This document shows positions 12,165 to 13,289 of a stretch of 13,602 nucleotides of DNA, piece by piece. A program made the position numbers and the translations under genes. The stretch is from Nitrospirae bacterium CG2_30_53_67 (GTDB lineage: Bacteria > CG2-30-53-67). The stretch lies in the NCBI GenBank assembly GCA_001873285.1, contig MNYV01000045.1, positions 1-13,602 on the forward strand. Reading direction: 5' to 3'. Every line of letters begins with the position of its first letter. Position 1 is the first letter of the stretch. The notes below the pieces were generated by a model. The model was not told the DNA's origin and ran no database searches. It saw only the letters and a list, made by a program, of their open reading frames with translations.

Positions 12165-12938
12165 ATGCCGCTTTATTCCACCGAAGCTGTTGTGCTCCGT
12201 AAGATTGACTACCGGGAATCCGACCAGATCATGACCTTCCTTACGCCGGATTACGGCAGGATCTCAGGATTGGTCAGGGGGGCAAAAAGAATACGAAGCC
12301 GCTTCGGAGCCGCCCTTGAAATGCTGACCTACGGGAGACTCATCTATTTTGACCGGCAGGGTAAGAACCTGGTTTCCATCAATCACTTCGATATCCTGAA
12401 GTCTTTTCAACGGATCCGGGAGGACCTGATCCGGTCCGCTTCCTGCCAGTATATGGCCGAACTGATCATGGGATTGATCCCGGAAAGGGAGTCAGCAACG
12501 GAGGTCTTTAAGCTTTTGGTCCGGAGCATGGAAGGGATGTCCGCCACTCGCGACCCTGATGCCGTCCTCAGGATCTTTGAGATCAAGTTCCTCAGCCTGA
12601 TCGGATTCTCACCGAGGATGGATGCCTGTGTTTTTTGCGGAAGCTCGAAAGGGCATTTTGGGTTTTCCATCAAAGACGGCGGGCTTGTCTGCTCTTCCTG
12701 CCGAGGGCGTGCAGCAGAAACCGATCCCGTACCGGAAGGGATCCTTTTTTTCTGGAAACAGGCATCGGCCATGGATCTTACGAAAATGGATCGTGTCCGG
12801 CTGCAGAGAAGGTTGAATACCGGACTCAAATGGCTTCTGCACCGTTATTTCCTCCATTTGCTTGGACGTGAGATCCGTTCGTTCATTTTCCTGGAAAACT
12901 TGGGAAAGGAAACGGGTGTGCGACAAATTTATGGGTAA
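12165..12938 (+). CDS. recO: DNA repair protein RecO, C-terminus altered by an inserted element
   Basis: 257 residues. RecO loads RecA onto SSB-coated DNA in the RecFOR pathway. The N-terminal OB fold (about 1-80) begins with the family signature STEAVVLRKIDYRESDQI, then RISGLVRGAKR. The helical middle (about 85-150) is followed by a four-cysteine zinc site, C155-x2-C158 and C176-x2-C179. The C-terminal helices end at REIRSFIFLENLGKETG (about 235-251). The last six residues VRQIYG and the TAA come from a mobile-like insertion. Without the insertion and one copy of its flanking repeat, the frame would continue for ten more codons (CLTPALENGK) to a TAA at 13190-13192, giving 261 residues. All conserved domains are intact, so function is probably kept. 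Start: ATG with GAGG ten bases upstream. Confidence 0.95.
   Translation: MPLYSTEAVVLRKIDYRESDQIMTFLTPDYGRISGLVRGAKRIRSRFGAALEMLTYGRLIYFDRQGKNLVSINHFDILKSFQRIREDLIRSASCQYMAELIMGLIPERESATEVFKLLVRSMEGMSATRDPDAVLRIFEIKFLSLIGFSPRMDACVFCGSSKGHFGFSIKDGGLVCSSCRGRAAETDPVPEGILFFWKQASAMDLTKMDRVRLQRRLNTGLKWLLHRYFLHLLGREIRSFIFLENLGKETGVRQIYG
12905..12916 (+). repeat. Left copy of the direct repeat flanking the insertion (target-site duplication)
   Basis: AAAGGAAACGGG, identical to 13147-13158. It encodes the recO residues KETG in frame. If the element begins with GGG (12914-12916), the true duplication is the first 9 bases. If the element begins at 12917, it is 12 bases. Confidence 0.8.
12919..12937 (+). 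repeat. Left terminal inverted repeat
   Basis: TGCGACAAATTTATGGGTA, perfect inverse of 13123-13141. It supplies the last recO codons and the first two bases of its TAA stop. Confidence 0.85.
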
Positions 12939-12953
12939 ATATTTCTCTAAGAG

Positions 12954-12984
12954 CGTCATTCCCCGACTGGATCGGGGAATCCAG
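12954..12984 (+). repeat. REP-like palindrome inside the element
   Basis: ATTCCCCGA (12958-12966), loop CTGGA, then TCGGGGAAT (12972-12980): a perfect 9-base stem within the common intergenic pattern CGTCATTCCCCG...CGGGGAATCCAG. The same pattern, reversed, is upstream of dgt. Confidence 0.7.
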
Positions 12985-12999
12985 ACAATAAAAGAATGG

Positions 13000-13097
13000 A
13001 TTGTCCGGTTAAGCCTGTCCTCCGATCCCCCGATCAAGCTTGCCCTCCGCCTTGATCGGAGGGTCAGAGGACAGGCCCGATCGGGGGACCGGACAAT
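13000..13097. repeat. Nested inverted repeat in the element core
   Basis: Three perfect stems nest symmetrically: ATTGTCCGGT (13000-13009) with 13088-13097, CCTGTCCTC (13014-13022) with 13067-13075, and CCGATCAAG (13030-13038) with 13051-13059, leaving a 12-base loop. An alternative pairing, CCCCCGATC (13027-13035) with GATCGGGGG (13079-13087), would compete with the middle stem. Transcribed as part of the recO message, this would form a large folded RNA. Confidence 0.75.
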
Positions 13098-13122
13098 GAC
13101 AAACATATGTAACCCTGATGTG

Positions 13123-13141
13123 TACCCATAAATTTGTCGCA
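13123..13141 (-). repeat. Right terminal inverted repeat
   Basis: TACCCATAAATTTGTCGCA, perfect inverse of 12919-12937. Five further bases to 13146 match the left end with one mismatch. Confidence 0.85.
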
Positions 13142-13146
13142 GACCC

Positions 13147-13158
13147 AAAGGAAACGGG
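13147..13158 (+). repeat. Right copy of the flanking direct repeat (target-site duplication)
   Basis: AAAGGAAACGGG, identical to 12905-12916, and joined to the displaced end of recO. Confidence 0.8.
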
Positions 13159-13192
13159 ATGCTTGACTCCGGCTTTGGAGAATGGTAAATAA
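13147..13192 (+). pseudogene. Displaced 3' end of ancestral recO
   Basis: Read in the frame of recO, this stretch gives KETG (duplicated) then CLTPALENGK and TAA at 13190-13192. It is no longer translated with recO because the element's own stop at 12936-12938 comes first. That the frame continues cleanly to a stop supports an insertion rather than a chance repeat, though the short length makes this suggestive only. Confidence 0.6.
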
Positions 13193-13204: not shown

Positions 13205-13223
13205 CCTCCGGCAAAGCCGGAGG
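13205..13223 (-). terminator. Perfect hairpin, possible leftward terminator
   Basis: CCTCCGGC, AAA loop, GCCGGAGG: 8 perfect pairs. On the minus strand it is followed by a U-rich run (ATATTTATTTA), so it could stop leftward transcription. On the plus strand no T run follows. No leftward gene is seen to its right within the window. Confidence 0.4.
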
Positions 13224-13224
13224 T

Positions 13225-13263
13225 ATTGCGATTGCTGGCCCCTCAAAGGGGCCTGATCGCAAT
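13225..13263. repeat. Long interrupted hairpin
   Basis: Outer stem ATTGCGAT (13225-13232) with ATCGCAAT (13256-13263), small internal loop (TGCT opposite TG), and inner stem GGCCCCT (13237-13243) with AGGGGCC (13247-13253) closed by CAA: 15 pairs in all. No T run follows. It abuts the preceding hairpin, so the two look like one dispersed repeat unit. Confidence 0.65.
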
Positions 13264-13289
13264 CGGTTAAAAAACACCCTCCCCGGAGT

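What the first reader, a model, noticed from the sequence alone, without database searches (positions are those of the whole stretch)
12905..13158. A MITE-like element of about 230 bases has inserted in the end of recO
Seen directly: 19-base perfect terminal inverted repeats (24 with one mismatch), a 9-12 base direct repeat flanking them, no transposase, and a palindrome-rich core. The repeat copies are recO coding sequence, and joining them restores an open recO end to 13192. This is the classic signature of a non-autonomous transposition event, here caught in an essential-type housekeeping operon. I do not recognise the ends, so the family may be undescribed.
Basis: partly seen in the sequence, partly recalled or inferred. 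Interest (0 to 1): 0.75.

Follow-up and report, generated by a model that had tools for sequence, protein, structure and literature searches.

The report
ISKra4-type MITE in end of recO
A 233-base DNA parasite that carries no genes, moved by a transposase of the ISKra4 family, has jumped into the last codons of the DNA-repair gene recO; about two dozen more copies lie in the same genome, so it is a real but fairly ordinary kind of mobile element.

Summary
The element is window 12914-13146 (233 bp). Its 24-bp ends differ by one base. The target duplication is 9 bp (AAAGGAAAC); it looks like 12 because element and target both continue with GGG. (1) The host genome holds about two dozen more copies: 22 units have both ends, 16 have flanks matching at 7 or more of 9 positions, and 8 match perfectly, at exactly 9 bp and no other length. 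(2) The same-genus genome has an empty site: its recO aligns without a gap to the joined flanks. (3) Full-length insertion sequences with the same ends exist; they encode an ISKra4-family transposase (NCBIfam NF033572) plus a DUF6788 protein. The host keeps a transposase piece cut by a contig edge. The family is therefore identifiable: an ISKra4-mobilised MITE. Its core is a CGTC-type REP pair, which also occurs about 20 times in this genome without the ends. RecO probably still works: the insertion lies beyond the conserved domain and replaces the last 10 residues with 6 and a stop. New member of a known kind; modest interest.

The parts
12165..12938 (+). recO reading frame as interrupted: 257 aa, the last 6 residues (VRQIYG) and the stop supplied by the element
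   Evidence: TIGR00613 RecO 175 bits, residues 6-244; Pfam RecO_N and RecO_C end at residue 239; translation
12905..12913 (.). left 9-bp target-site duplication AAAGGAAAC (recO coding sequence)
12914..13146 (+). MITE of 233 bp with ISKra4-type ends
12914..12937 (+). left terminal inverted repeat GGGTGTGCGACAAATTTATGGGTA, identical to the left end (3' side of the transposase gene) of the full-length IS in L095
12954..12983 (+). CGTC-tagged palindrome (REP): CGTC, 9-bp stem ATTCCCCGA, loop CTGGA, stem TCGGGGAAT, tail CCA
   Evidence: form as described in PMC3733652
13000..13101 (.). second, facing palindrome cluster (ATTGTCCGGT...ACCGGACAAT, ending AATGAC), with nested hairpins; variable or absent in other copies
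   Evidence: inverted repeats I2, I3, I5; alignment
13123..13146 (-). right terminal inverted repeat (GGGTCTGCGACAAATTTATGGGTA read inward), with the GGGTCT start seen at the right end of the IS
13147..13155 (.). right 9-bp target-site duplication AAAGGAAAC; the GGG that follows is ordinary recO sequence
13156..13192 (+). orphaned recO end (CLTPALENGK* here, GLTPVLEHGK* in the same-genus genome), cut off by the insertion

Best explanation
The element is a miniature inverted-repeat transposable element (MITE) moved in trans by an ISKra4-family (Mutator-type DDE) transposase. Shown: it has the ends of such an IS, left and right kinds both kept; it makes 9-bp duplications; more than 20 copies lie at different sites; the same-genus recO site is empty. 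Inferred: the transposase of a full-length ISKra4 element, now or formerly resident in the lineage, recognised the 24-bp ends (perhaps only the outer 17) and pasted the element into recO after codon 251. The left terminal repeat gave recO a new stop, so the last 10 residues were replaced by 6, beyond the conserved domain; RecO very likely still works. The core is a pair of facing CGTC-type REP palindromes, a repeat that is also dispersed in this genome without the ends; the MITE most likely arose when ISKra4 ends came to flank such a pair.
For: Own genome: 48 matches to the 18-base end with up to 3 mismatches, against 1 for the reversed control. 22 copies have both ends, 124-262 bp long; 8 have perfect 9-bp duplications, all different, and 16 match at 7 or more of 9 positions. 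Empty site in same-genus G001: flanks align gap-free. Full-length IS: L095 1283-3131, 1849 bp, 24-bp left end identical to the MITE's, with an ISKra4 transposase (NF033572, 338.9 bits, cut-off 205) and DUF6788; a second, L145 129-1991, transposase 63% identical. Of 51 collection loci with the full TIR context 14 also hold the transposase, against 0 of 66 loci where the 16-mer occurs without that context. Own genome holds a transposase C-terminus, 81% identical, beside a left end at a contig end, C177. Ten contigs whose coordinates coincide with G001 end inside an IS end encoding ...ENRACA*. 9-bp duplications and 24-bp ends fit the Mutator-like IS group that includes ISKra4 (PMC3942029).
Against: No complete ISKra4 element was seen in the host genome: one fragment at a contig end, as expected for a collapsed repeat in a draft of 183 contigs, but not proof of a working copy. 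Transposition itself was not observed. 6 of 22 copies have flanks that match at 6 or fewer positions (older or recombined copies). The empty site comes from another species of the genus, not from another strain. The IS copy in L095 has no matching flanks of its own.
Confidence: 0.95

Rival explanations
1. The element is a REP/BIME-type palindromic repeat spread by a RAYT (tyrosine transposase), and the terminal repeats are incidental.
For: The core is a CGTC-type palindrome pair that also occurs at about 20 other places in this genome without the ends.
Against: The 24-bp ends and the 9-bp duplications mark the outer ends of the unit in many copies, and the same ends bound a DDE transposase IS. 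CGTC repeats are reported to have no associated transposase (PMC3733652).
Confidence: 0.03
2. The insertion is kept because it does something for the host, for example a strong RNA hairpin after recO that stabilises or ends the era-recO transcript.
For: Very stable fold, z = -10.8. Another gene (416-aa antiporter-like frame at C106) also ends inside a copy. Coxiella QMITE2 sits at the 3' ends of recN, ruvB and other genes (PMC5896051).
Against: A stable fold follows from the inverted repeats of any MITE. No terminator-like site lies inside the element. The insertion is not shared with the same-genus genome.
Confidence: 0.1
3. Assembly artefact: a repeat wrongly joined into recO.
For: Draft assembly of 183 contigs, and the repeat is present in many copies.
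Against: Perfect 9-bp duplication of recO sequence at both edges, and correct recO sequence on both sides matching the same-genus gene. An assembly join does not make target duplications.
Confidence: 0.02

Closest known systems
ISKra4 family of insertion sequences (p-MULT 4, Mutator-like DDE transposases; PMC3942029)
   Same: Left end identical over 24 bp to that of a full-length ISKra4-type IS (L095); 24-bp ends lie within the 18-39 bp reported for the transposase class; 9-bp duplications within the reported 8 or 9 bp.
   Different: The element has no transposase, and its inner sequence is not that of the IS. The IS found here also carries a DUF6788 frame before the transposase.
Chunjie MITE of Geobacter uraniireducens (Chen et al. 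2008, cited in PMC10969869; original paper not held)
   Same: Full length 235 bp, further copies of 178-235 bp plus partial ones, and one copy inserted in an operon.
   Different: Its end sequence could not be read here, so it is untested whether it is the same family. A Geobacteraceae locus (L113) carries the present end, so a relation is possible.
MITEAba12 of Acinetobacter (PMC6382973)
   Same: Non-autonomous, 9-bp duplications, ends shared with a resident IS, found in intergenic DNA and in genes.
   Different: Mobilised by ISAba12, 16-bp ends, 113 bp long, AT-rich core.
QMITE2 of Coxiella burnetii (PMC5896051)
   Same: 150-190 bp, 7-11-bp duplications, a REP-like core that also occurs alone, sits at the 3' ends of genes including DNA-repair genes and supplies new stops.
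   Different: A GTAG-type REP instead of a CGTC-type one, and a different host; its ends were not compared letter by letter here.
CGTC-tagged palindromic repeats (PMC3733652)
   Same: Core unit CGTC + 9-bp stem + 5-base loop + CCA tail, arranged as facing pairs.
   Different: There the repeats have no associated transposase; here the pair lies between ISKra4 ends.

Membership tests
MITE (bacterial) | Short (about 70-300 bp), no coding capacity for a transposase | tested here: met
   233 bp; copies 124-262 bp; no transposase frame inside
MITE (bacterial) | Terminal inverted repeats shared with an autonomous IS | tested here: met
   L095 left end identical over 24 bp; right end shares the outer GGGTCTGCGACAAA and differs slightly further in
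MITE (bacterial) | Target-site duplications at different sites in many copies | tested here: met
   8 of 22 perfect at 9 bp, 16 of 22 match at 7 or more positions
MITE (bacterial) | Empty site in a relative | tested here: met
   G001 recO aligns gap-free to the joined flanks
MITE (bacterial) | Observed mobility | not testable with these tools
   needs a transposition assay
ISKra4-family derivative | Partner IS encodes an ISKra4-family transposase | tested here: met
   NF033572 338.9 bits against cut-off 205
ISKra4-family derivative | 8- or 9-bp duplications and ends of 18-39 bp | tested here: met
   9 bp and 24 bp; values for the class in PMC3942029
ISKra4-family derivative | Working partner IS in the same genome | tested here: inconclusive
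   Only a C-terminal piece at a contig end, C177
CGTC-type REP (core only) | CGTC tag, 8-9-bp stem beginning with AT, 4-5-base loop, CCA tail, facing pairs | tested here: met
   Read directly at 12954-12983; facing pairs outside MITEs; definition
Chunjie | Chunjie end sequence | not tested
   Original paper not held

The most novel reading that the evidence does not exclude
CGTC-type palindromic repeats, which are reported to have no transposase of their own, are carried around this genome inside MITEs with ISKra4 ends, so that ISKra4 transposases are one of their vehicles; the lone palindromes would be pieces left behind by such MITEs or the source from which the MITE core was taken.
Probability: 0.25. 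Interest if true: 0.45.

Novelty: new member of a known kind. Interest (0 to 1): 0.3.

Why it matters
It adds a clearly documented MITE family, with partner IS, exact duplication length and an empty site, in a little-studied lineage. It is a case where a core housekeeping gene gets its stop codon from a mobile element. The link between CGTC repeats and ISKra4 ends bears on the open question of how those repeats spread, but the evidence here does not settle it.

Tried and rejected
Rfam gave only sub-threshold matches, nearly all microRNA models answering to a long hairpin, meaningless here. Plasmid records hold nothing similar. A search of solved structures with the transposase found none. The 12-bp duplication was rejected in favour of 9 bp. 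A RAYT-driven REP was rejected as the explanation for the whole unit. In the collection scan, 66 of 117 loci hold the 16-mer without the rest of the terminal repeat and were set aside as chance.

Full report
Observation. The window contains, at 12914-13146, a 233-bp unit bounded by 24-bp inverted repeats with one mismatch and flanked by a direct repeat of recO sequence. The only refinement is the duplication: it is 9 bp (AAAGGAAAC). It appears as 12 because the element begins with GGG and the target also continues with GGG. This is settled by the family: in 22 copies with both ends, flanks agree over exactly nine positions (15-17 of 22 per position, against 4-9 of 22 just outside), and perfect repeats occur at length 9 (8 copies) and at no other length from 4 to 14.

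Copies. The host genome (2.36 Mb, 183 contigs) has 48 matches to the 18-base inner end with up to 3 mismatches, against 1 for the reversed control. Twenty-two units with both ends, the window's included, were extracted, 124 to 262 bp long, at unrelated sites. Sixteen have flanks that match at 7 or more of 9 positions. The outer 40 bases and the start of the core are shared, while the middle varies in number and kind of palindromes. In several copies only about 17 bases of the right terminal repeat remain (GGGTSTGCGACAAAAAT) before palindrome sequence begins; three of these (C95, C169, C17) still have perfect duplications, which suggests a short functional end (inference).

Empty site. The same-genus genome G001 has recO (85% identical protein) ending in LGQEAGGLTPVLEHGK*. 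Its DNA aligns to the joined window flanks without a gap through the insertion point and to the stop. Of four other family genomes with recO, the ends of three were read (G002, G004, G005) and have ordinary short C-termini without the element. The MITE end (pattern with up to 2 mismatches) is absent from all four other genomes of the family that were searched, but present in both genomes of this genus.

Partner. Of these, 51 have the full GGGT[GC]T context, and 14 of the 51 also hold the transposase, against none of the 66 without that context. L095 holds a whole IS of 1849 bp: its left end is identical to the MITE's over 24 bases, and it encodes a DUF6788 protein and a transposase that scores 338.9 bits against the ISKra4 model (cut-off 205). 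L145 holds a second, 63% identical in the transposase. The IS has GGGTGT at one end and GGGTCT at the other, and so does the window's copy, so both kinds of end are kept. The flanks of the L095 IS do not match each other, so that copy itself shows no duplication. In the host the only transposase trace is a C-terminal piece, 81% identical, beside a left end where contig C177 breaks off. Ten contigs whose coordinates coincide with G001 break off just inside an end that encodes ...ENRACA*, the transposase C-terminus; this is how a multi-copy IS looks in a draft assembly (inference). The published description of this transposase class gives 18-39-bp ends and 8- or 9-bp duplications (PMC3942029).

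Effect on recO. The RecO model matches residues 6-244 of the 257 present, nearly its full length. The insertion follows residue 251 and replaces CLTPALENGK with VRQIYG and a stop at the left terminal repeat. A working RecO is therefore likely (inference). A second gene, a 416-aa antiporter-like frame at C106, also ends inside a copy, so recO is not unique.

Core. The unit at 12954-12983 has the form of a CGTC-tagged palindrome: CGTC, 9-bp stem starting AT, 5-base loop, CCA tail (definition in PMC3733652). A facing partner follows. The 30-base unit matches 37 places in the host. Twenty stretches holding the matches outside complete MITEs were fetched; in 19 no MITE end was found, though L229 looks like a decayed copy, and L244 has an end. 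The palindromes are thus a separate repeat family that has been taken up between ISKra4 ends, or less likely left behind by decayed MITEs. The paper cited says these repeats have no transposase of their own, which makes the combination worth a note.

Verdict. It is a new member of a known kind, with precedents in Chunjie, MITEAba12 and QMITE2. The family of the ends is identifiable, so the claim that the family may be undescribed is weakened, although I found no report of this specific MITE.

Noticed in passing
L178 1397-1490 (host contig C177, near 37782): An IS right end, then 9 bp (CTCCTCTTG), then an IS left end head to tail; resembles a tandem insertion or the junction reported for circular forms of this transposase class (6-10 bp between ends, PMC3942029).
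   Followed up: partly
L019 96-1346 with the MITE at 1326-1524 (host contig C106): A 416-aa antiporter-like frame whose last residues and stop lie inside a MITE copy.
   Followed up: partly
L226-L245: About 20 CGTC-type palindromes, mostly as facing pairs, dispersed in the host without MITE ends.
   Followed up: partly
window 13205-13270: Hairpins just after recO (CCTCCGGCTTTGCCGGAGG, and a longer one around GCGATTGCTGGCCCC...GGGGCCTGATCGC); the first scores as terminator-like on the minus strand.
   Followed up: no
L095 2611-3042: A DUF6788 protein (83 bits) precedes the ISKra4 transposase in both full-length IS elements found; role unknown.
   Followed up: no
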